A DNA stretch of 52,490 nt, from positions 1-52,490 of the forward strand of contig JAOADT010000016.1 in NCBI GenBank assembly GCA_026417175.1. The letters are read 5' to 3'. The translations under genes were made by a program, and so were the position numbers. The stretch is from Deltaproteobacteria bacterium. Lineage in GTDB: Bacteria > Desulfobacterota > Syntrophorhabdia > Syntrophorhabdales > JANXAF01. Each line of letters begins with the position of its first letter. Position 1 is the stretch's first letter. Positions 327 to 52,490 of this stretch are shown in pieces. The notes below the pieces were generated by a model, which was not told where the DNA came from, made no database searches, and saw nothing but the letters and a program-made list of their open reading frames with translations.

Positions 327-2705
327 CTACAAACCAGAAGTGGAAAGCAAGGCTTTCTTCACTAAAGATTTTATTATTTTCACCTTGTATTCATTCATGC
401 TTAGTGCAACTAAATGAGAAACAGCAGCTTGAGCGGCAGCTTCAGCTATGTCTTCGTTTATCACTTTCCCTTTTATCACCTCTTCCGAAGAAAATGCGCG
501 AATAGGTCTCGGTGATATTGACCCGAGTACTATCCTTGAATCCCAGCACACGTTGTCAGAAATCTCTAGAACTAGAGCCACGCTTGCTATAGCAAAGTCA
601 ATCGAGTCTCGAAGTCTGAATTTTAGGAAAGTCTGCCTTTTGTTATTTGACATTTGCGGAATAATTATCTCTGTCAATACAACACTATCCCCTACAGGAC
701 CTCGAGGCGATTCAAATAGATCCTCTACCGAAATTATTTTCTCTCCCTCCGGTCCTTGTATTTTCACCTGTGCGCCAAGGGCCATAAGTGCAACCGCCAT
801 ATCTGAAGGATTTACCGCGACACATCCGCAGTTTATACACCTCATCGCTTCAAACTTTACATCTTCAAAACTCAAATTTAGCACATCTTCTAAATCTAGC
901 ACTCTTTGATCCTTACCCCTCTTGGGTATTGTAACTCGTTTTGTCGGCTTAAGGTAAGCCACGTTCACCTTATCCCAAAGATGTTCCTTCTTTTTTTCTT
1001 CGCTTTTTAAGTCTTTTCCAGAAAGCAGACGATCTATAGCAAAAGCGGCTTTTCTTCCGGCAACTACTGCCTCGATTACAGTAGCCGGACCAGAAACGAA
1101 ATCTCCTCCTGCAAATAGGTTTTTACCAACAAAGCCCGTACTCATATCTACCTTTATTTTGCCCCTATCATCGAGAAACTCCCCTGGTATAAAACTACTA
1201 TCAGGCGTTTCTCCTATGGCTTTTATTACAGCGTCATACTCTACGGTAAACTCTGAACCTTTTATTGGTATTGGCTTGGGTCTGCCTGTCTCATCTTTCG
1301 GTCCCAATTCCATTCTTACGCACTTCAAGATAAGCTTTTCACCCTTCTTTTCTACACCAATAGGGAGAGTCAAGAAGTCAAATTCAATGCCTTCCTCTTT
1401 GGCCAGTTTTATCTCTTCTTCTAATGCGGGCATCTCTTTTTCAGTCCTTCTGTAAAGGATCCTAGGCTTGGCTCCCAGTCTCAAAAGAACCCTCGCTACG
1501 TCTATCGCAGAGTTTCCCCCACCTATTACCGCAGTTTTTATACCTGGTAGATCTTTTACGCCCGAATTAATCTTCTTTAGGAAATCTAAACCATTTATAA
1601 GTAGCTCTTCCCCTGGAATATCCATTTTTGCATCTTTGTAGGCCCCAGTTGCGACAAAAACAGCGTCAAACCTTTGCATAAGATCATAGATACTTATATC
1701 TCTTCCAATCTCCGTATTCATCTTAAAATCAACTTTAAAAACCCTTTTGAATACGGAAACTAGATTATCCACGACTTTCTTTGGAAGTCTAAACGAAGGT
1801 ATGGCATAATGGAGTAAGCCACCAGCAACTGGATCCCTCTCAAAGATAGTGACAGCATAGCCGAGTCGACGGAGGTAATATCCAGCCGAAAGCCCTGCAG
1901 GACCCGATCCTACCACTGCTACACTCTTTCCATTATTAATTAACTCATCCTTAAAAAGTATATCGGCCTTATCGAGTGCGTAATCTCCAAAGAATCTCTC
2001 TATGTCTCTTATGGCTACTGATTCATCCAAATAATTTCTCGTACATTCCTTTTCACAATAGTGGGGACATACCCGTCCGGTAATTGCTGATAAGGGATTA
2101 TTCTCAAAGAGAATTCTTGCCGCTTCATCTGGATTTCCCTCCCTCAAGCTTTTCAAATAGGAAGGTATGTTAACACCAGCAGGACATGAGGCGGCACATG
2201 CAGATGGTCTATTCCCCTCCTTGTAACATTCAAAAACTGAATGGTATCTATTGTCTCCTGTAAGCGCGTAACAGGTCTTACCACCCTTTAGGTAACAAAT
2301 AAGTTTTCCTCCAATCTGATGTGGGTATCTATAATACCAACAACGCACATCCTGGCAAAGATTCCCGCCAATTGTACCCATGTTACGGATCTGAGGAGAA
2401 GCCACTGATAAAGCTGCCTCTTTAAGAAGTCCATATTTTTCTTTAACCAGGGGTGATTTCGCAATATCGTCTAATTTGGTAAGTGCTCCTATCTTAAGAT
2501 TGCCGTTTTCTTCTTTTATGTATTGAAGATCTGGAATGTTTTTTATGTTTATTAGCATCTCAGGGTAAACTTTAAGGCAGTCCCTTTTAAGCAAGGGAAG
2601 TATATCCGTTCCGCCTGCAATTAGACGGGCCTTGCCCCGGTTCTTTACTAACAAATCTACTGCCTCAGCGATACTTCCCACAGCAATATACTCAAACGGC
2701 TTCAT
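327..2705 (-). CDS. Mo-hydroxylase FAD subunit with an inserted GltD-like NAD(P)H oxidoreductase module
   Basis: This 792-residue protein combines two flavoenzymes. Residues 1-150 are the FAD-binding domain of the CoxM/HcrB family (AGGTDILPLLK at 30-40, RNMGTIGGNLC at 107-117). Residues ~160-625 are a GltD-like unit: N-terminal Fe-S cysteines (C160, C170, C174, C213, C217, C221), a first dinucleotide fold (VVGSGPAGLSAG, 264-275), a second (AVIGGGNSAIDVA, 392-404) and AGGDFVSGPATVIEA (532-546). Residues 628-683 (CVAVNPSDMAVALMALGA onward) resume the FAD domain, and ~690-792 form the CO-dehydrogenase flavoprotein C-terminal domain. The insertion lies in the loop that binds an extra [4Fe-4S] cluster in 4-hydroxybenzoyl-CoA reductase beta subunits: C122, C137 and C145 precede it and C628 follows. 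It is the last gene of the trimer operon. The electron path NAD(P)H-FAD-FeS-Mo is inferred; the substrate is unknown. Confidence 0.88.
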   Translation of the reverse strand: MKPFEYIAVGSIAEAVDLLVKNRGKARLIAGGTDILPLLKRDCLKVYPEMLINIKNIPDLQYIKEENGNLKIGALTKLDDIAKSPLVKEKYGLLKEAALSVASPQIRNMGTIGGNLCQDVRCWYYRYPHQIGGKLICYLKGGKTCYALTGDNRYHSVFECYKEGNRPSACAASCPAGVNIPSYLKSLREGNPDEAARILFENNPLSAITGRVCPHYCEKECTRNYLDESVAIRDIERFFGDYALDKADILFKDELINNGKSVAVVGSGPAGLSAGYYLRRLGYAVTIFERDPVAGGLLHYAIPSFRLPKKVVDNLVSVFKRVFKVDFKMNTEIGRDISIYDLMQRFDAVFVATGAYKDAKMDIPGEELLINGLDFLKKINSGVKDLPGIKTAVIGGGNSAIDVARVLLRLGAKPRILYRRTEKEMPALEEEIKLAKEEGIEFDFLTLPIGVEKKGEKLILKCVRMELGPKDETGRPKPIPIKGSEFTVEYDAVIKAIGETPDSSFIPGEFLDDRGKIKVDMSTGFVGKNLFAGGDFVSGPATVIEAVVAGRKAAFAIDRLLSGKDLKSEEKKKEHLWDKVNVAYLKPTKRVTIPKRGKDQRVLDLEDVLNLSFEDVKFEAMRCINCGCVAVNPSDMAVALMALGAQVKIQGPEGEKIISVEDLFESPRGPVGDSVVLTEIIIPQMSNNKRQTFLKFRLRDSIDFAIASVALVLEISDNVCWDSRIVLGSISPRPIRAFSSEEVIKGKVINEDIAEAAAQAAVSHLVALSMNEYKVKIIKSLVKKALLSTSGL

Positions 2706-2708
2706 AAC

Positions 2709-4991
2709 TCAATTGCCTCCTTGTTTTTCTAAGGCTTTCAATATTTTATCAGGTGTGGCCGGATAGGAAAGTAACCATGTACCAATGGCGTTGGAAATGG
2801 CCATTACCACTGCAGCAGGACCAGGCGATGTTGCAATCTCCCCGACACCCACTGCACCAAATTCATGACTGGGAAAAGGGGTCTCTAGAACTATATTGTC
2901 TATAACCGGCAGGTTTGAAAAAGTACGCCATTTGTAATCTATCATGTCCGTAGTTATTATTCTTCCCAAATTTGGGTCAAAGACGGTCTCTTCAAACAAC
3001 GCAGTATCAATTCCTGCGGATCCCAGACACCCGTTGAGCTGGTTTTCTAGACAGTTCTGATCGATTATTTGACCAACATCAGTGGCATTTACAACGCGGG
3101 TTACCTCTGCCTTTCCCGTTTCAGTGTCCACCTCGACCTCCACAAAGGAAATCATAAAATTACAAAGGGAGTAATCAGGCTCAAATCGACCATAACCAAT
3201 TATGGTTCTCATAGTCCCCATGGCCTTTCTCCATGTGGTCTTCCTATTAGGGTCATCTTTCACATATATAAATCCATCTTCGGTCTCAAGGTCTTGCGGG
3301 TTTGCTTTCAGTTCCTTTGCAGCTAATTCGAAGAGTTTCTGTTTAGCATCTTTAGCGGCGTTTATTACGGCACTCCCTATAGCGTACGTTCCTCTTGAGC
3401 CAACAAGTCCAAATTCATAAGGATTAATGTCCGATTCTGGAGGAGACACAAAAACCTGTTCCAGGGGTATTTGCATAACCTCTGCAGCTATTTTGCAAAG
3501 GTTACTCCTCTGGCCGCCGCCCTGCTCCGGCACCGCCACATACAACGTTACAGTATGATCTGGGTCGATCCGCACATATGCCTCAGCAACGTCTTCGCCA
3601 ACATCAGCATTACCATGCACACCAACTCCTATGCCTACCCTTTTTGATCCGTTGACGAAAACTGGCTTAAGCCATCCTTTCCACTTTTCTTTCCATCTGA
3701 AAGCCTGGGCGCCTGCATCTATAGCTTTAGTAAAATCAATTACCCTTGATACCCACCACTCGCCATCTCTCCAGAAATACCCATCACCGGCTTTTATTGC
3801 GTTTTTCTTGAAGAAATCTACAGGATCTATATCGAGCTTGGCCATGGCAAGATAAAACAAAGGTAAAAGAGCCGACTTTAACTCCTGTCCGCCAAATCCC
3901 CTTATCCACCCGGAACTTGCCCTATTTGTACATACGATCTTTGGTCTTACGTTCCAGTTAGGACACCTTATCACAAGCTGGGCCTCTCCTAGTCCAACCA
4001 TTACTTGAGCCTGAGTCACAGCCGAGTAGTTACCAGTGTTCACCAACCAGTCGGCAGATACTGCAGTTACTGTGCCGTCCTTTTTCATACCCACTTTGCC
4101 TTTGATCCGGGAACCAAGTCTCAAAGTGAAGGTTGTGAGATGCTCCTCTTTTGTGTATGAAAGCTTCACAGGTTTACCTGCTGCCCTTGCAAGCAATATG
4201 GTATGTATCGCAATCGGCAATATGGTACCCTTCGATCCGTAACTTCCCCCGCATTGACAACCGTGGACCACTACTTTGAACTTCCTCTTCATAATGTAAT
4301 AGAGGCTTATCTTATCCATGTATATTCCCTGGGACGTGAGCCATACATGCACAGTGTCCGGATCTTCCCATGCTGCAATCACAGCTGGTGGTTCAGGGGG
4401 AAGAGGATTAGGAATATTTTCATATGCAAAAACCTCTTCCACAATTACGTCAGCTTCTTTAAAGCCTTTTTCCACATCACCGACAATAAGTTCCTTCAAA
4501 CCTTCTGGAACTCGTGGACTACCCATCCATGGGTTACCGAGCGGAAGGGTATTGTTGGGGAACTCTTCATAAAGCTGAGGCGCACCAGGTTTTATGGCTT
4601 CTTCTACATCGTAAACTGCAGCTAAGAGTTCATAATCGACTTTTATAAGATCTAGGGCTTCAAGCGCTATTTCTTCCGTCTCAGCAGCAACTAACGCAAC
4701 CGCATCTCCCACAAATCGTACTTTTTTATCGAGGACCCGCAGATGAGATGGCAAACCCATCTTCCAATCTGGTACGTCTTTATAAGTGAGAACTGCTTTA
4801 ACCCCTGGAACTTTCTTCGCCTTTTCCGTGTCGATCTCTTTGATTAAGGCATGAGGGTATGGGCTTCTTAGAACCTTTCCAACTAACATATCAGAGAGTT
4901 TTATGTCGTCTAAGTATTTAGCCCTTCCGGTCACTATATCCTGTGCATCTTTACGTGGAGTAGGTCTGCCTAAAAACTTATAACGACCCAT
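2709..4991 (-). CDS. xanthine oxidase family molybdopterin-binding subunit (HcrA/CoxL-like)
   Basis: At 760 residues this is the usual length for the large catalytic subunit of molybdenum hydroxylases. The N-terminal a/b hammerhead domain (GRYKFLGRPTPRKDAQDIVTG onward, ~1-125) precedes the molybdopterin-binding region, which contains WIRGFGGQELK, VPEQGGGQRSN and, near the C-terminus, GAVGVGEIATSPGPAA with the glutamate expected at the Mo centre. The cofactor-contact segment reads GGQELK rather than the common GNPQ form, so it is a divergent subfamily. The stop lies 3 bases before the FAD/GltD subunit start, and the start overlaps the upstream 2Fe-2S gene by 14 bases. Together they form an S-L-M trimer resembling 4-hydroxybenzoyl-CoA reductase or a related aldehyde/N-heterocycle hydroxylase. 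Substrate cannot be read from the sequence. Confidence 0.9.
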   Translation of the reverse strand: MGRYKFLGRPTPRKDAQDIVTGRAKYLDDIKLSDMLVGKVLRSPYPHALIKEIDTEKAKKVPGVKAVLTYKDVPDWKMGLPSHLRVLDKKVRFVGDAVALVAAETEEIALEALDLIKVDYELLAAVYDVEEAIKPGAPQLYEEFPNNTLPLGNPWMGSPRVPEGLKELIVGDVEKGFKEADVIVEEVFAYENIPNPLPPEPPAVIAAWEDPDTVHVWLTSQGIYMDKISLYYIMKRKFKVVVHGCQCGGSYGSKGTILPIAIHTILLARAAGKPVKLSYTKEEHLTTFTLRLGSRIKGKVGMKKDGTVTAVSADWLVNTGNYSAVTQAQVMVGLGEAQLVIRCPNWNVRPKIVCTNRASSGWIRGFGGQELKSALLPLFYLAMAKLDIDPVDFFKKNAIKAGDGYFWRDGEWWVSRVIDFTKAIDAGAQAFRWKEKWKGWLKPVFVNGSKRVGIGVGVHGNADVGEDVAEAYVRIDPDHTVTLYVAVPEQGGGQRSNLCKIAAEVMQIPLEQVFVSPPESDINPYEFGLVGSRGTYAIGSAVINAAKDAKQKLFELAAKELKANPQDLETEDGFIYVKDDPNRKTTWRKAMGTMRTIIGYGRFEPDYSLCNFMISFVEVEVDTETGKAEVTRVVNATDVGQIIDQNCLENQLNGCLGSAGIDTALFEETVFDPNLGRIITTDMIDYKWRTFSNLPVIDNIVLETPFPSHEFGAVGVGEIATSPGPAAVVMAISNAIGTWLLSYPATPDKILKALEKQGGN

Positions 4992-5508
4992 TTCTCCTCC
5001 TTTTCTCGATTACGTCTTTTACAGCCCTTAGCACGTGGTAATGACTTATACAGCGACAGTAATGTCCGGATAGAGCGTCCTTGATATCCTCTTCTGTGAC
5101 CGAAGGATTCCCATCAAGCAGTGCTTTGAGGCTCATAATAATCCCTGGTGTACAGAAGCCGCATTGGAAAGCGGTATGCTCTATAAAAGCCTCTTGTAAA
5201 GGATCCAACCTGCCACTAGTGGGGTCACCTATTCCTTCGATGGTGACTATGCTTTTACCATCACATTCTACTGTGAGGGTCAAGCAGGAAAGAACTGGCT
5301 TTTCCTCTATTAAAACCGTACATGCCCCACATGCCCCATGATCACATCCTACTTTAGTTCCTGTAAAACCCAACTTTTCCCTCAAAGTATGTGTCAAAGT
5401 ATGCCAAGGCTGAACATCTTTACCGACCGTTAAATCGTAAATCTTGCCGTTCACCTTTAGCCTAATTGAACTAGAAAGAGCACCTTTTGCCTGGACTTTA
5501 GTTTCCAT
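4978..5508 (-). CDS. 2Fe-2S subunit of Mo hydroxylase (HcrC/CoxS-like)
   Basis: This 176-residue protein carries both [2Fe-2S] motifs of the family: a plant-ferredoxin-type set (GCDHGACGACTV plus a following Cys at VLSC) and the C-terminal four-helix set (CGFCTPG and YCRCI). It passes electrons between the Mo subunit and the FAD/GltD subunit encoded downstream. It is the first gene of the three-gene operon. The N-terminus has a ~15-residue extension before the ferredoxin fold and no Tat signal, so the enzyme is probably cytoplasmic. A promoter candidate lies about 30 bases upstream of the start. Confidence 0.93.
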   Translation of the reverse strand: METKVQAKGALSSSIRLKVNGKIYDLTVGKDVQPWHTLTHTLREKLGFTGTKVGCDHGACGACTVLIEEKPVLSCLTLTVECDGKSIVTIEGIGDPTSGRLDPLQEAFIEHTAFQCGFCTPGIIMSLKALLDGNPSVTEEDIKDALSGHYCRCISHYHVLRAVKDVIEKRRRNGSL

Positions 5509-13981: not shown

Positions 13982-16264
13982 TCACCCTTTGTTTTTCTCT
14001 TTAAGCGCCTTGAGAACTTTTTCGGGAGTTATAGGGAGGTCTCTTATTCGGACTCCTACAGCATCGTATATTGCATTGGCAATTGCTGGTGCGGTCGGGA
14101 CAAGCCCAGGCTCTCCAATACCTTTTGCACCGAAAGGTCCTGCCTCCTCATTAGTCTCTATAATTACGATCTCTACTGGTGGAACGTCTCTTACCGTAAG
14201 GATTTTGTAATCTAAGAAATTTCCATTCTTCAAATAACCATTATCGTAAATCATCTTTTCAGAAAGAGCGTACCCTATTCCCTGTAAAACCCCACCGTAT
14301 ATCTGTCCCTCTAGCAACAATGGATTTATGGCACGTCCCACATCATGGGCCGCCACATACTTTAAAATCTTGACCTTGCCAGTTTCTGTGTCTACTTCTA
14401 CTTCCACTCCGTGGGTCCCGTAGGCATAAGCAGCCGAAAGATTCCCTCTAAACTCCTTATTCAAATTTTCATTTTGAGGGTCATAGAAATGTTCTGCCAT
14501 GAGCATTGAACCACCGGTTGTGAAATGGATTCTCCTTAATGCCCTTGCAAGTGGAATACTCTTCTGTGGGTCACTTTTAGAAAACGCTATTCCATTCTTT
14601 ATCGCTACGTCTTCAGGTGGAACTTCTAGCAACTTTGATAATATTTCCAAAAGCTTCTTTTTTATCTTTTTTGCCGCGAAAAGCGCAGAATTTCCAGCAA
14701 CAAACGTGGTTCTGCTTGCGTGCACGCCCACATCCCAAGGACAAATATCGGTATCGTTGTGTATAACATTTACGTCCTCTACGGGTACCCCCAGTTCTTC
14801 TGCCACAATCTGTGCAATGACTGTATCTGCACCTTGACCTATGTCGCTTGCTCCTGTGAAAACATCTACCTTACCAAAATCATCCATCTTTATAATAGTA
14901 CCGCAGCCATCAGACTTGTAAACTCTTGCTCCTCCACCTACATGTATGAGGGATGCAATTCCAACTCCTCTTTTTTTTAGCCCCCTTCCCCTCTTTTCTT
15001 TCCAATTTAGTCTTTTAGCAACCTCCTCTATACATTCCTTTAATCCACAAGTGGTTACCCTGAATCCTTGGGGCGTAATCTCTCCTGGCTCGTTTGCGTT
15101 TATGATCCTTAGATCATAAGGATCTATTCCGCTTTCTTCTGCAAGGTGATCCAAAGATGACTCGATTGCAAATGTTGCTTGGGGATTACCGTAACCTCTC
15201 ATTGCTTGACAGTACGTGTTGTTAGTGTAAACACATGTTGCCGTGTATTTTACGTTTGGGACTCTGTATAAAGAGGAAATAGGCATCATCATCACGGAAG
15301 GCGTTGTGGCACCCCACGATGTGTAAGCTCCGTTATCAAGTATCATTTCCACTTCCCTGAACGTTAGTCTTCCATCCCTGTCGCATCCCTGAGAGATCTT
15401 CGTTATGGTACACTGCCTAGGAGAGGTTGCAAAAAATTCTTCATCTCTGGAAAAGACTATTTTTACGGGTTTTCTAGTTTTAAGAGCCAAAAGTATAGCT
15501 ATATATTCATAGGGATAAGTATCTAACTTACTTCCAAATCCGCCTCCGATTGTGACCTGGATAATCCTCACTCTCCTATTCCTGAGTCCTAATGCTGTCA
15601 GAGCTTCCAGAAATTCATTTTGGGCAAGTGATGGGATCTGTGTATTGCTGTACATAGTCAAGTTGTTGTTTACATCGAAATAGGCCACACATCCACTAGT
15701 TGCTAAGCAACAGTGGGTCACCCATTGGGTCGTAAACGTATCTTCAACCACATATGCTGACTCCTTTTTAGCTTTTTCGACGTCCCCGCACACAAGTCTC
15801 CAAGGTAGCTTAAGTATATTTGAACCTACCTCTTCATGAAGAATGGGCGCATCTTCCCTCATGGCTACCAGTGGATCAAAAATTCCTTGTAGAACTTCGT
15901 ATTCTACAGAAATGAGGTCTAAAGCCTCTTCGGCTATTTCAGGGCTTATGGCACAGACTGCGGCTATTTCATCTCTTGTGGACAGAACTTTTGTGCCTTT
16001 AAGTGGAGGGTTGTCCTTCATAAACCCGATTCTAAAGTGTGGAGGAAAGTCCTTTGCAGTTATGACAGCTTTAACTCCTGGTAGTTTTTCTGCCTTCGAT
16101 GTGTCTATGTGTAAGATTCTGGCATGGGGGTATTTGCTGTAAAGGATCTTTCCGTAAAGCATGCCGGGTAGTTCCACATCGTCTATATAAAGTGCCTGGC
16201 CTGTAACTTTAAAGGGTGCGTCCTTCTTTGGTATCTTTTTACCTATTATATTAAAGCTCATCAT
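13982..16264 (-). CDS. Mo hydroxylase molybdopterin-binding subunit of the iaa-like operon
   Basis: Catalytic subunit (760 residues) of a xanthine-oxidase-family enzyme. The hammerhead domain (~1-125; IGKKIPKKDAPFKVTGQALYIDD) is followed by molybdopterin-binding domains with GGGFGSKLDTYPYE, MRGYGNPQATFAIES, FTGASDIGQGADT and, near the C-terminus, GAKGIGEPGLVPTAPAI containing the catalytic glutamate. The motifs are textbook, unlike those of the divergent homologue at 2709-4991. It is the last gene of the eleven-gene operon and starts 4 bases inside the 2Fe-2S gene. In the indoleacetate scheme this trimer would hydroxylate C2 of the indole ring to give the oxindole; that role is inferred from operon content. 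Confidence 0.93.
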   Translation of the reverse strand: MMSFNIIGKKIPKKDAPFKVTGQALYIDDVELPGMLYGKILYSKYPHARILHIDTSKAEKLPGVKAVITAKDFPPHFRIGFMKDNPPLKGTKVLSTRDEIAAVCAISPEIAEEALDLISVEYEVLQGIFDPLVAMREDAPILHEEVGSNILKLPWRLVCGDVEKAKKESAYVVEDTFTTQWVTHCCLATSGCVAYFDVNNNLTMYSNTQIPSLAQNEFLEALTALGLRNRRVRIIQVTIGGGFGSKLDTYPYEYIAILLALKTRKPVKIVFSRDEEFFATSPRQCTITKISQGCDRDGRLTFREVEMILDNGAYTSWGATTPSVMMMPISSLYRVPNVKYTATCVYTNNTYCQAMRGYGNPQATFAIESSLDHLAEESGIDPYDLRIINANEPGEITPQGFRVTTCGLKECIEEVAKRLNWKEKRGRGLKKRGVGIASLIHVGGGARVYKSDGCGTIIKMDDFGKVDVFTGASDIGQGADTVIAQIVAEELGVPVEDVNVIHNDTDICPWDVGVHASRTTFVAGNSALFAAKKIKKKLLEILSKLLEVPPEDVAIKNGIAFSKSDPQKSIPLARALRRIHFTTGGSMLMAEHFYDPQNENLNKEFRGNLSAAYAYGTHGVEVEVDTETGKVKILKYVAAHDVGRAINPLLLEGQIYGGVLQGIGYALSEKMIYDNGYLKNGNFLDYKILTVRDVPPVEIVIIETNEEAGPFGAKGIGEPGLVPTAPAIANAIYDAVGVRIRDLPITPEKVLKALKEKNKG

Positions 16265-16728
16265 TTCCCCCTTTTTGCCGCATTTATTGCATCAATTATC
16301 TTTACATATCCAGTACATCTGCAAAGATTTCCTTCTATCGCCTCTTTTATATCCTCATCGTCTGGGTTTTTCTTTTCCTCAAAGAGCGCATAAGCAGACA
16401 TTATCATACCGGGCGTGCAGAATCCGCACTGGACGGCCCCTTCTTCTATGAAAGCTTTCTGAAGTGGATGGAGGGCTTCCCCTGGTCCGGATATCCCTTC
16501 TATGGTTAGCACATCTTTGCCATTTACCTCCATAACAGGAAAAAGACAGGAGTTTACAGCCATTTTATCAATAACGACTGTACATGCACCACATTCCCCA
16601 TAACCGCATCCCTCTTTGGTGCCTTTAAGTTTTAGAACTTCCCTTAAAAAGTAGAGGAGTGTCCAGTGGGACTCGACCTCTGCGGTCACTTCTTCACCAT
16701 TGAGTTTGAATTTTATTTCTCTCTTCAT
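16261..16728 (-). CDS. 2Fe-2S subunit of Mo hydroxylase of the iaa-like operon
   Basis: 155 residues with both family [2Fe-2S] motifs: GCGYGECGACTVV plus a following Cys in VNSC, and CGFCTPG with LCRCTGY. I place the start at the ATG at 16728 (MKREIKFKLNGEEV) because it has an AAGGAG ribosome binding site a few bases upstream. The reading frame stays open to 16899 but that part overlaps the FAD-subunit gene and has no family similarity. The protein wires the Mo centre to the FAD subunit. It lies 22 bases after the FAD gene and overlaps the Mo gene by 4 bases. Confidence 0.93.
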   Translation of the reverse strand: MKREIKFKLNGEEVTAEVESHWTLLYFLREVLKLKGTKEGCGYGECGACTVVIDKMAVNSCLFPVMEVNGKDVLTIEGISGPGEALHPLQKAFIEEGAVQCGFCTPGMIMSAYALFEEKKNPDDEDIKEAIEGNLCRCTGYVKIIDAINAAKRGK

Positions 16729-16750
16729 TGAGCGCTCCTTTTTATCCTCC

Positions 16751-17689
16751 TTAGTCAAAGGCCCTCTTTGCCGAAAGAAGAATAGCTCTTCTTGTAAGGA
16801 CCTTAACCATCTCTCTTCTATACCAAGCTTCACCCCGTAGTGTGTCTCTCGGTTTCGCGACTGATGAGGCAATTTCAGAAGCCTCTCTAATAGCCTCATC
16901 AGTCAATCTTTTACCGCATAAATAATCTTCAGCCTCCTTTGCCCGAAGAGGCCTAGGGGCTACCACGCCCATTGCTATTCTCGCCTCTTTAACAGTGATT
17001 CCATAAGATAGGAGCCTTGATTCGAATTCGGAATAAGTCTTTTCCCCAGCTTCTCTTTTTAAGAAATCTATATCTACCTCTGGAGACAACGTAAGTCGTG
17101 TCGCCACGCTCACAATAGCTAAATCCATAGCTTCTCGTCTCGAATGCTTTATGTACGCTGATCCCGAATACGGAGGAAGAAAAGTTATTTCAAAGCCCGT
17201 TACAATCTCTCCCTCATCTTTCGATACAGAGTAAGGGCCAAGAAAAAAATCGTGGAGAGGTATTTTTCTTTCTCCCTTTTCATTTCTGATCAGCACCTTT
17301 GTGTCAAAGACCAAAAGGGGACATGCAGTATCTGCCGAGGGTGCCGCATTACATATGTTTCCTCCGATTGTTGCAACATTTCTTATCTGTTTTGAACCGA
17401 GTTTTCTTACCGCATCATGAAGTGCGGTGTAGTATTTCTCGATATATTTATCCTTTAATAACTGCTCGTGGGTTACACAACTTCCTATTTTTAGCTCCTT
17501 TCCTTTCTCTATGACTTTTAGAGCAGTTATGTTTCGTAAAGAGATCAAGTTTTTTGGAGAGATTTTCTTTCGTTTTATGTTAACCATCACATCTGTCCCA
17601 CCGGCTATGTAGATGGCATCGCCCAAGCTCTTAAAAAGATTTAGTGCCTCTTCAATACTTTGTGGCACGTGATAGTCAAATCTTTTCAC
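16751..17689 (-). CDS. FAD-binding subunit of Mo hydroxylase of the iaa-like operon
   Basis: A 312-residue CoxM/XdhB-type flavoprotein. Residues ~1-170 form the FAD-binding domain, with YIAGGTDVMVNIKR and RNVATIGGNICNAAPSADTA contacting FAD; residues ~190-310 are the flavoprotein C-terminal domain (MGVVAPRPLRAKEAE, WYRREMVKVL). There is no extra cysteine loop and no GltD insertion, in contrast to its homologue at 327-2705. The start codon is GTG, preceded by a purine-rich GGGGGGAA stretch. It follows the CoA ligase gene by 10 bases and completes an M-S-L trimer with the two downstream genes. Confidence 0.92.
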   Translation of the reverse strand: MKRFDYHVPQSIEEALNLFKSLGDAIYIAGGTDVMVNIKRKKISPKNLISLRNITALKVIEKGKELKIGSCVTHEQLLKDKYIEKYYTALHDAVRKLGSKQIRNVATIGGNICNAAPSADTACPLLVFDTKVLIRNEKGERKIPLHDFFLGPYSVSKDEGEIVTGFEITFLPPYSGSAYIKHSRREAMDLAIVSVATRLTLSPEVDIDFLKREAGEKTYSEFESRLLSYGITVKEARIAMGVVAPRPLRAKEAEDYLCGKRLTDEAIREASEIASSVAKPRDTLRGEAWYRREMVKVLTRRAILLSAKRAFD

Positions 17690-51640: not shown

Positions 51641-51952
51641 TATGCAACACACTCAAGAAATCGATGAAAGCCAGATCACCACAGTTATTGCAGAGGACTT
51701 AGAGATAAAGGGGACTGTTAAGTTCAGAAGTTCTCTTATGATAAAGGGTATTCTTGAGGGAGAGATATTCTCTGAGGGCTTGCTAATAATAGGACCTACT
51801 GCCAAAGTTACAGCCACTATTACGACTAGGAATCTCATATCCCACGGTGAAGTTACTGGAAATGTTACAGCGAGTGAGCAAGTTATACTTAAGAGTACAT
51901 CAGTTCACCAGGGGGATATATCAACGCCGAATATAACTATAGAGAGTGGGGC
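51641..51952 (+). repeat. direct repeat, copy 1
   Basis: 312 bases identical to 52179-52490, beginning one base before the bactofilin start codon. The upstream sequences differ. Confidence 0.95.
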
Positions 51953-52091
51953 CCTTTTTAACGGTACATGTATAATGAAGAGGGAGCCAAAGAAAGAATT
52001 AGAACAAAAAGTCATAGAAGAATCTCTAGAGGATAAGTCTTCGGAGTATGAAAAAAGAGAGGAGCACGAAAGCGACAGCCAGTATTCTTAA
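51642..52091 (+). CDS. bactofilin (second copy)
   Basis: 149 residues: a short N-terminal tail, beta-helix repeats (TVIAEDLEIKGTVKFRSSLM, IKGILEGEIFSEGLLIIGPT, NLISHGEVTGNVTASEQVIL) and a long acidic C-terminal tail (EESLEDKSSEYEKREEHESD). It has an AAGGAGG site. It is clearly diverged from the first bactofilin in the cluster, yet its first 311 bases are repeated exactly from 52180 onward. Co-assembly with the neighbouring bactofilins is plausible. Confidence 0.93.
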   Translation: MQHTQEIDESQITTVIAEDLEIKGTVKFRSSLMIKGILEGEIFSEGLLIIGPTAKVTATITTRNLISHGEVTGNVTASEQVILKSTSVHQGDISTPNITIESGALFNGTCIMKREPKKELEQKVIEESLEDKSSEYEKREEHESDSQYS

Positions 52092-52178
52092 ATTCATTTT
52101 TCCCTTTTTCATTAAAACTACAGGGGTCCTTAATGCAAAAAATCTTAAAAAAAATAAAAATACTTTAGGGGAGGAGAC

Positions 52179-52490
52179 TATGCAACACACTCAAGAAATC
52201 GATGAAAGCCAGATCACCACAGTTATTGCAGAGGACTTAGAGATAAAGGGGACTGTTAAGTTCAGAAGTTCTCTTATGATAAAGGGTATTCTTGAGGGAG
52301 AGATATTCTCTGAGGGCTTGCTAATAATAGGACCTACTGCCAAAGTTACAGCCACTATTACGACTAGGAATCTCATATCCCACGGTGAAGTTACTGGAAA
52401 TGTTACAGCGAGTGAGCAAGTTATACTTAAGAGTACATCAGTTCACCAGGGGGATATATCAACGCCGAATATAACTATAGAGAGTGGGGC
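52179..52490 (+). repeat. direct repeat, copy 2, running to the window end
   Basis: Identical to 51641-51952 at every base I compared; the right boundary of the repeat is not visible because the window ends. Confidence 0.95.
52180..52490 (+). CDS. bactofilin (third copy, truncated by the window end)
   Basis: Partial gene with its own ribosome binding site (GGGGAGGAG) and an ATG at 52180. The 103 complete codons visible encode the same residues as the second bactofilin, with no nucleotide change. Either a very recent tandem duplication or gene conversion made it, or the sequence end is an assembly artefact. The 88-base gap from the previous gene contains A/T-rich runs and is unlike the sequence upstream of copy two. 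Confidence 0.8.
   Translation, partial: MQHTQEIDESQITTVIAEDLEIKGTVKFRSSLMIKGILEGEIFSEGLLIIGPTAKVTATITTRNLISHGEVTGNVTASEQVILKSTSVHQGDISTPNITIESG

What the first reader, a model, noticed from the sequence alone, without database searches (positions are those of the whole stretch)
327..2705. A complete GltD-like NAD(P)H module nested inside the [4Fe-4S] loop of a HcrB-type FAD subunit
4-Hydroxybenzoyl-CoA reductase beta subunits carry a ~40-residue loop with cysteines that bind an extra [4Fe-4S] cluster. Here C122, C137 and C145 occur with nearly the spacing I recall for that loop, but the fourth ligand equivalent (C628, in CVAVNPSD) comes after about 480 inserted residues forming a GltD-type flavoprotein with its own Fe-S cysteines. 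The result would be a Mo enzyme whose electron-input subunit includes an NAD(P)H dehydrogenase and possibly two flavins, raising the possibility of NAD(P)H-driven reduction or electron bifurcation.
Basis: partly seen in the sequence, partly recalled or inferred. Interest (0 to 1): 0.85.

Follow-up and report, generated by a model that had tools for sequence, protein, structure and literature searches.

The report
Molybdenum enzyme with nested NAD(P)H module
A bacterial molybdenum enzyme has a whole second electron-handling flavoprotein inserted inside the metal-binding loop of its electron-transfer subunit, which probably lets it trade electrons directly with NAD(P)H; the same nested protein occurs in more than a dozen other genomes, so it is real and not an assembly error.

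Summary
Confirmed. The 792-residue gene (minus strand, 2705→327) is the third gene of a tight operon: [2Fe-2S] subunit, molybdenum subunit, FAD subunit. Its PCMH-type FAD domain (1-158 + 628-792) is interrupted by a complete GltD/NfnB-type NAD(P)H flavoprotein (159-627). The insertion lies between the third and fourth cysteines of the [4Fe-4S] loop known from 4-hydroxybenzoyl-CoA reductase (HcrB). In 21 nested homologues, 11 cysteines plus Glu236 are invariant, exactly enough ligands for three [4Fe-4S] clusters. In six uninterrupted relatives, including one in the same genome, only C122, C137, C145 and C628 remain: the HcrB cluster. Nested and uninterrupted versions use closely related molybdenum subunits and can sit beside the same neighbouring genes, so the GltD module behaves as an optional plug-in. 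Most likely it gives an organic-acid (probably aromatic acyl-CoA) molybdenum enzyme a direct NAD(P)H connection; the window's copy carries an NADPH-type Arg-Arg motif. Substrate and electron direction are inferred. Bifurcation is not supported: no NfnA-like partner adjoins the operons. It is not a 4-hydroxybenzoyl-CoA reductase by family cut-offs. I found no description of this architecture in the papers searched. Verdict: a new variant of a known kind.

The parts
327..2705 (-). Nested FAD subunit gene (792 aa): PCMH FAD domain split by a GltD/NfnB-type module
2232..2705 (-). N-terminal PCMH part, residues 1-158: FAD motifs GGTD (31-34) and T111..G114-N115; first three [4Fe-4S] loop cysteines
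   Evidence: FAD_binding_5 3-118
825..2231 (-). Inserted GltD/NfnB-type NAD(P)H:FAD module, residues 159-627
   Evidence: Fer4_20, Pyr_redox_2; NF009410 159-639; Foldseek to NfnABC, StnC, NfnL
330..824 (-). C-terminal PCMH part, residues 628-792 (CO_deh_flav_C); begins at C628 of 'CVAVNPSD'
2271..2342 (-). Cluster I ligands C122, C137, C145 (HcrB-type [4Fe-4S]); the fourth is C628 (822-824)
   Evidence: invariant in 21 nested + 6 uninterrupted sequences; HcrB C122/C138/C146/C155 in the 1rm6_B alignment
822..839 (-). C623 and C626 (837-839, 828-830), proposed cluster II ligands; C628 (822-824), cluster I ligand
   Evidence: C623/C626 only in nested forms; GltD-like proteins L009 and L063 have RCxxC near the C-terminus and no third Cys
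2043..2198 (-). C170, C174, C213, C217, C221: proposed ligands of GltD clusters II (C170, C221 with C623, C626) and III (C174, C213, C217 with E236)
   Evidence: invariant in all 21 nested sequences; cluster pattern inferred from DPD/NfnB
1998..2000 (-). E236, the position of the NfnB Glu ligand / StnC K170
1788..1790 (-). R306, the position of NfnB R201 / StnC R239
1893..1910 (-). FAD-binding GSGPAG motif of the GltD module (266-271)
   Evidence: invariant positions
1446..1451 (-). R419-R420 of the YRRTxxEMPA motif, NADPH-type; replaced by CLE-type residues in 11 of 21 homologues
2709..4991 (-). Molybdenum subunit (760 aa, xanthine oxidase family; active-site Glu retained in GVGE, residue 718)
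4978..5508 (-). [2Fe-2S] subunit (176 aa); overlaps the Mo gene by 14 bp

Best explanation
This is an NAD(P)H-linked molybdenum hydroxylase-family enzyme. Its FAD subunit is an HcrB/PaoB-like flavoprotein into which a GltD/NfnB-type module was inserted just before the last ligand of the [4Fe-4S] loop. SHOWN by sequence comparison: the nesting, the split of the cysteines into a shared set (C122, C137, C145, C628) and a nested-only set (C170, C174, C213, C217, C221, C623, C626), conservation in 21 sequences from many genomes, and exchange of nested and uninterrupted FAD subunits in the same genomic context. INFERRED: three [4Fe-4S] clusters, I = C122/C137/C145/C628; II = C170/C221/C623/C626; III = C174/C213/C217/E236. 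Electrons run NAD(P)H - FAD(GltD) - III - II - I - FAD(PCMH) - two [2Fe-2S] - Mo, in one or both directions. Because C626 and C628 are two residues apart, clusters II and I must lie close together, which makes the insertion site an electron junction. The module replaces a soluble donor or acceptor (reduced ferredoxin in 4-hydroxybenzoyl-CoA reductase) with a built-in pyridine-nucleotide connection, much as NADPH-glutamate synthase relates to ferredoxin-glutamate synthase. The substrate is most likely the CoA thioester of an imported organic, probably aromatic, acid. The reductive direction is slightly favoured by analogy with 4-hydroxybenzoyl-CoA reductase. The stated confidence is for the NAD(P)H wiring; substrate and direction are well below it (about 0.45).
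For: Domain order. Position-by-position uninterrupted paralogues. C628 = HcrB C155. Invariant cysteines and E236 in 21 nested sequences, only four of them in 6 uninterrupted ones. Canonical GltA proteins carry EAxRCxxC at the N-terminus; many other GltD-like proteins carry it after the GltD core, and in L009 and L063 it sits near the C-terminal end with no third Cys, so C623/C626 are assigned to GltD and C628 to HcrB. Both flavin motifs and the NAD(P) motif are intact. One GltD-insert clade, SH-aLRT 99. Mo subunits of nested and uninterrupted systems are 54-64% identical to the window's in the main family and mixed on the tree. Context exchange: nested L049 and uninterrupted L109/L113 share a 73-74% identical downstream CoA ligase; nested L105 and uninterrupted L112, in one genus, share an 86% identical transporter binding protein. 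A CoA ligase is co-directional and overlapping or close in L046 and L106. GltD-like modules are described as making NAD(P)H electrons available to a partner domain via low-potential [4Fe-4S] clusters (PMC8097209).
Against: No biochemistry and no cofactor-bearing model. AlphaFold gives low confidence to the loop (119-152, 626-630) even with the deeper alignment (mean pLDDT 81.9), so cluster geometry is untested. The window's own genome and its sister G001 lack BamA above cut-off although 39 of 46 genomes of the order have it, so a feed into the benzoyl-CoA pathway is not shown for this member. Substrate and direction are unproven. PCMH halves of nested forms are not one clade in the best tree (single origin not rejected, AU p = 0.30).
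Confidence: 0.72

Rival explanations
1. Same wiring, run oxidatively: the Mo centre hydroxylates its substrate and electrons leave through the GltD FAD to NADP+ (or NAD+), so the module is an electron outlet.
For: Most xanthine oxidase-family enzymes hydroxylate and pass electrons to NAD+ or other acceptors (general knowledge); the PaoB-like 5y6q/5g5g relatives with the same loop are aldehyde oxidoreductases. The window genome lacks BamA above cut-off, so a reductive hydroxybenzoyl-CoA step would not obviously feed a known pathway there.
Against: Neighbouring CoA ligases and IclR/PcaR-type regulators fit acyl-CoA metabolism in a lineage of mostly aromatic degraders (BamA in 39 of 46), where the known loop-bearing enzyme, 4-hydroxybenzoyl-CoA reductase, works reductively.
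Confidence: 0.35
2. Electron bifurcation or confurcation: NAD(P)H electrons are split at the GltD FAD so that one drives low-potential chemistry at Mo and the other goes to a higher-potential acceptor.
For: E236 and R306 match the NfnB Glu ligand and R201 positions and are invariant; best Foldseek matches are bifurcating Nfn-type complexes.
Against: No NfnA-like partner or other high-potential branch next to the operons inspected; the Fe-S branch leads only to Mo. StnC, with the equivalent Arg, is a non-bifurcating electron conduit (PMC10482914).
Confidence: 0.08
3. The GltD module is structural or regulatory and the physiological partner is still ferredoxin acting at the HcrB cluster.
For: Uninterrupted relatives with closely related Mo subunits exist in the same genomes.
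Against: Complete conservation of FAD, NAD(P) glycine-rich and Fe-S ligand positions across 21 sequences points to a redox function.
Confidence: 0.06
4. Chimeric assembly joining two genes.
For: The gene lies near a contig end (position 327 of the contig).
Against: Same full-length architecture with the same junctions in many other genomes, up to 61% identity; uniform GC3.
Confidence: 0.01

Closest known systems
4-hydroxybenzoyl-CoA reductase HcrABC (PDB 1rm6)
   Same: Three-subunit Mo/[2Fe-2S]/FAD organisation; extra [4Fe-4S] loop with four cysteines (C122/C138/C146/C155 aligned to C122/C137/C145/C628)
   Different: HcrB has no GltD insert; the Mo subunit here is a separate subfamily (357 bits vs cut-off 994.55); substrate untested
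PaoABC aldehyde oxidoreductase FAD subunit (5g5g) and aldehyde oxidase medium subunit (5y6q)
   Same: Same loop, fourth Cys in a 'CIATHPSD'-type motif; 5y6q_B is the best PCMH match
   Different: No GltD insert; aldehyde oxidising
NfnB/NfnL (4ylf, 5jca) and StnC / NfnABC NfnA (8oh5, 9bov, 9n5u)
   Same: GltD fold with two [4Fe-4S], FAD and NAD(P)H; C-terminal RCxxCGC motif as in the NfnABC and StnC chains; Glu ligand position as in NfnB
   Different: Here nested in a PCMH flavoprotein and wired to a Mo hydroxylase; no NfnA/StnAB bifurcating partner seen
NADPH-glutamate synthase versus ferredoxin-glutamate synthase
   Same: Analogy only: the same catalytic enzyme exists with ferredoxin as donor or with a GltD module for NAD(P)H (PMC8097209)
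   Different: Unrelated catalytic subunit; GltD there is a separate subunit or end fusion, not a nested insertion

Membership tests
4-hydroxybenzoyl-CoA reductase (HcrABC) | Score above the equivalog cut-offs TIGR03194/TIGR03195/TIGR03193 | tested here: not met
   357.3 vs 994.55; 148.1 vs 404.55; 154.4 vs 257.8 bits
4-hydroxybenzoyl-CoA reductase (HcrABC) | Four-cysteine [4Fe-4S] loop in the FAD subunit | tested here: met
   C122, C137, C145, C628 invariant in 27 sequences and aligned to the HcrB cysteines
4-hydroxybenzoyl-CoA reductase (HcrABC) | Ferredoxin-dependent reductive dehydroxylation of 4-hydroxybenzoyl-CoA | not testable with these tools
   Needs an enzyme assay
Xanthine oxidase family (Mo hydroxylases) | Mo, [2Fe-2S] and PCMH-FAD subunits with Moco domains and active-site Glu | tested here: met
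   MoCoBD_1/2, Ald_Xan_dh_C, Fer2_2, FAD_binding_5, CO_deh_flav_C; GVGE Glu aligned
GltD-like NAD(P)H flavoproteins | Fer4_20 plus Pyr_redox_2 with FAD and NAD(P) motifs and ligands for two [4Fe-4S] | tested here: met
   invariant residues; EAxRCxxC motif at the C-terminal end of the module
Nfn-type electron-bifurcating enzymes | NfnA-like (FNR/[2Fe-2S]) partner forming the high-potential branch | tested here: inconclusive
   None adjoins the operons inspected; an FNR-like gene and a GltD fragment lie about 5 kb away in L046 only, beyond other genes; a distant partner cannot be excluded
Nfn-type electron-bifurcating enzymes | Glu ligand of the proximal cluster and Arg at FAD N5 | tested here: met
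   E236 and R306 positions invariant; not diagnostic, because StnC has the Arg and its FAD does not bifurcate

The most novel reading that the evidence does not exclude
A bifurcating molybdenum enzyme: the nested GltD FAD splits NAD(P)H electrons, using a partner encoded elsewhere, to push low-potential electrons through three [4Fe-4S] clusters into a reductive aryl-CoA (Birch-like) reaction at Mo, removing the need for reduced ferredoxin.
Probability: 0.07. Interest if true: 0.88.

Novelty: new variant of a known kind. Interest (0 to 1): 0.62.

Why it matters
It shows a whole redox module inserted between two ligands of another protein's metal cluster so that the insertion point becomes an electron junction, a way of joining electron chains that differs from end-to-end fusion. 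Nested and uninterrupted forms coexist in the same genomes with closely related Mo subunits, a natural comparison for asking how an enzyme changes redox partner (ferredoxin-type versus NAD(P)H-type). If the reductive role holds, it would offer an NAD(P)H-fed route into chemistry thought to need low-potential ferredoxin, relevant to anaerobic degradation of aromatic compounds.

Tried and rejected
The genome-contig scan returned no full-length nested hit, so distribution was measured with the genome search. A tie to the benzoyl-CoA pathway was tested through BamA and not found: 4 of 12 carriers in the order lack it above cut-off. A separate GltD gene beside uninterrupted operons was looked for and not seen. 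Literature searches for a PCMH-GltD fusion found none. Chimeric assembly rejected. C160, considered as a GltD ligand, is not conserved. Papers on the cluster ligands of DPD and HcrB were not found in the library.

Full report
OBSERVATION. The ORF at 327-2705 is on the minus strand and encodes 792 residues. It is the last gene of a compact operon: [2Fe-2S] subunit 5508→4978, Mo subunit 4991→2709 (14-bp overlap), FAD subunit 2705→327 (3-bp gap). Pfam places FAD_binding_5 at 3-118, Fer4_20 at 168-245, Pyr_redox_2 at 261-549 and CO_deh_flav_C at 699-788; NCBIfam places GltD family NF009410 at 159-639 and HcrB/XdhB families on the flanks. Solved-structure matches split the same way: Nfn/Stn/GltD chains on about 168-629, PCMH FAD subunits on about 1-118 and 627-789.

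THE INSERTION POINT. The same genome carries an uninterrupted paralogue (C44; L059:5648-6619, 323 aa) whose loop reads CQDIRCWYYRYPARLGGPLICLRKGGKTCLAIRGDNRYHALIGKRCYAVCPSD. The window protein reads CQDVRCWYYRYPHQIGGKLICYLKGGKTCYALTGDNRYHSVF-[GltD]-RCINCGCVAVNPSD. In the HcrB alignment the fourth loop cysteine, C155, pairs with the C of CYAVCPSD, which is window C628. A 27-sequence alignment of 21 nested and 6 uninterrupted proteins leaves exactly four invariant cysteines: C122, C137, C145, C628. The nested proteins add seven more, all invariant: C170, C174, C213, C217, C221, C623, C626, plus Glu236.

LIGAND BUDGET (inference). Canonical GltA proteins (L004, L010-L012) carry EAxRCxxC at the N-terminus, before the C-x3-CP motif. 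Many other GltD-like proteins carry EAxRCxxC after the GltD core, and in L009 and L063 it lies near the C-terminal end with no third Cys. So C623 and C626 take the place of the N-terminal pair in the distal GltD cluster with C170 and C221; C174, C213, C217 and E236 form the proximal cluster next to FAD (E236 aligns with the Glu of NfnB, not with the Lys of StnC); and C628 is left for the HcrB-type cluster. Eleven Cys plus one Glu are exactly twelve ligands. The DPD and HcrB ligand assignments used here rest on my own knowledge; papers giving them were not found in the library.

REALITY AND SPREAD. Full-length nested homologues occur in 12 of 46 genomes of the order, window included, 9 of 395 in an even sample of the phylum, 3 of 297 in the phylum of an 'Acidobacteria' genome, 1 of 344 in the phylum of a 'Bacillales' genome and 0 of 25 in that of a Hippea genome. 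GC3 is uniform across the junctions. The GltD inserts form one clade (SH-aLRT 99). In the PCMH tree the uninterrupted group falls inside the nested one, but a single nested clade is not rejected (AU p = 0.30), so one insertion with or without a later loss both remain possible.

A PLUG-IN. Mo subunits of nested and uninterrupted operons are 54-64% identical to the window's in the main family (83% in sister G001, 46% in the Bacillales-phylum case) and mixed on a weakly supported tree, whereas the genome's other Mo hydroxylases are about 30% identical. Nested L049 and uninterrupted L109 and L113 are followed by the same CoA ligase (73-74% identity); nested L105 and uninterrupted L112, from one genus, are followed by the same ABC-transporter genes (86% for the binding protein). 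In G542 (L116) the nested subunit instead accompanies Mo subunits only about 28% identical to the window's. This is the pattern expected if the catalytic enzyme stays the same while its redox partner is changed.

FUNCTION. Both flavin motifs, the NAD(P) glycine-rich motif and all ligands are conserved, and GltD modules are described as making NAD(P)H electrons available to a partner domain through low-potential [4Fe-4S] clusters (PMC8097209). Ten of 21 sequences, including the window, have Tyr-Arg-Arg after the second strand (NADPH-type in GltD proteins, inference); eleven have Cys-Leu-Glu-type residues, suggesting NADH. Context (CoA ligases, transporters, IclR/PcaR-type regulators) points to CoA thioesters of imported organic acids. 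The order is rich in anaerobic aromatic degraders (BamA above cut-off in 39 of 46), but the window genome, G001, G011 and G023, all carriers, lack it, so the benzoyl-CoA link is not shown for this member. Direction therefore stays open, with a slight preference for reduction by analogy with 4-hydroxybenzoyl-CoA reductase.

BIFURCATION. The NfnB-like Glu and Arg positions are present, but StnC, a non-bifurcating conduit, shares the Arg, and no NfnA-like gene adjoins the operons inspected. A linear converter of hydride to single electrons is the simpler reading.

STRUCTURE. AlphaFold (27 sequences) has mean pLDDT 81.9 with confident PCMH and GltD cores but low confidence at 119-152 and 626-630.

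VERDICT. It is a new variant: a known Mo-hydroxylase FAD subunit with a known NAD(P)H module nested in its Fe-S loop. I found no description of it in the papers searched; only openly licensed papers are held, and the Syntrophorhabdus aromaticivorans genome paper (doi 10.1111/1462-2920.12444), a place where such an enzyme might have been mentioned, was not read.

Noticed in passing
window 13982-17689 (-): Second Mo hydroxylase operon (Mo, [2Fe-2S], uninterrupted PCMH FAD subunit; Mo subunit 645 bits to the HcrA model, below cut-off), followed by genes that look like a PaaK-type CoA ligase, HyuA/HyuB, methylmalonyl-CoA mutase with MeaB, a GntR regulator and a CaiB-type CoA transferase up to 27775 (the latter read by eye, not searched).
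   Followed up: partly
window 51641-52478: Two identical 300-bp copies 538 bp apart at the very end of the window's last bases, inside bactofilin-like ORFs; a true tandem duplication or an assembly-end artefact.
   Followed up: partly
L059 (C44), L060 (C4), L061 (C97) of the own genome: With the two in the window, the genome has at least five Mo hydroxylase operons; C44 has the [2Fe-2S] and Mo subunits fused into one 928-aa chain.
   Followed up: partly
A2 alignment, window residues 418-420: The NAD(P) motif differs between nested subgroups (YRR versus CLE-type), suggesting a switch of pyridine nucleotide within the family.
   Followed up: partly
order-level search, G000 and G001: The window genome and sister G001 lack BamA above cut-off although almost the whole order has it; a loss of the benzoyl-CoA pathway in this small-genome family is possible.
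   Followed up: no
L116:2058-10068 (G542): The nested FAD subunit is encoded with two paralogous Mo subunits of a different subfamily (about 28% identity), so the module is not tied to one catalytic type.
   Followed up: no
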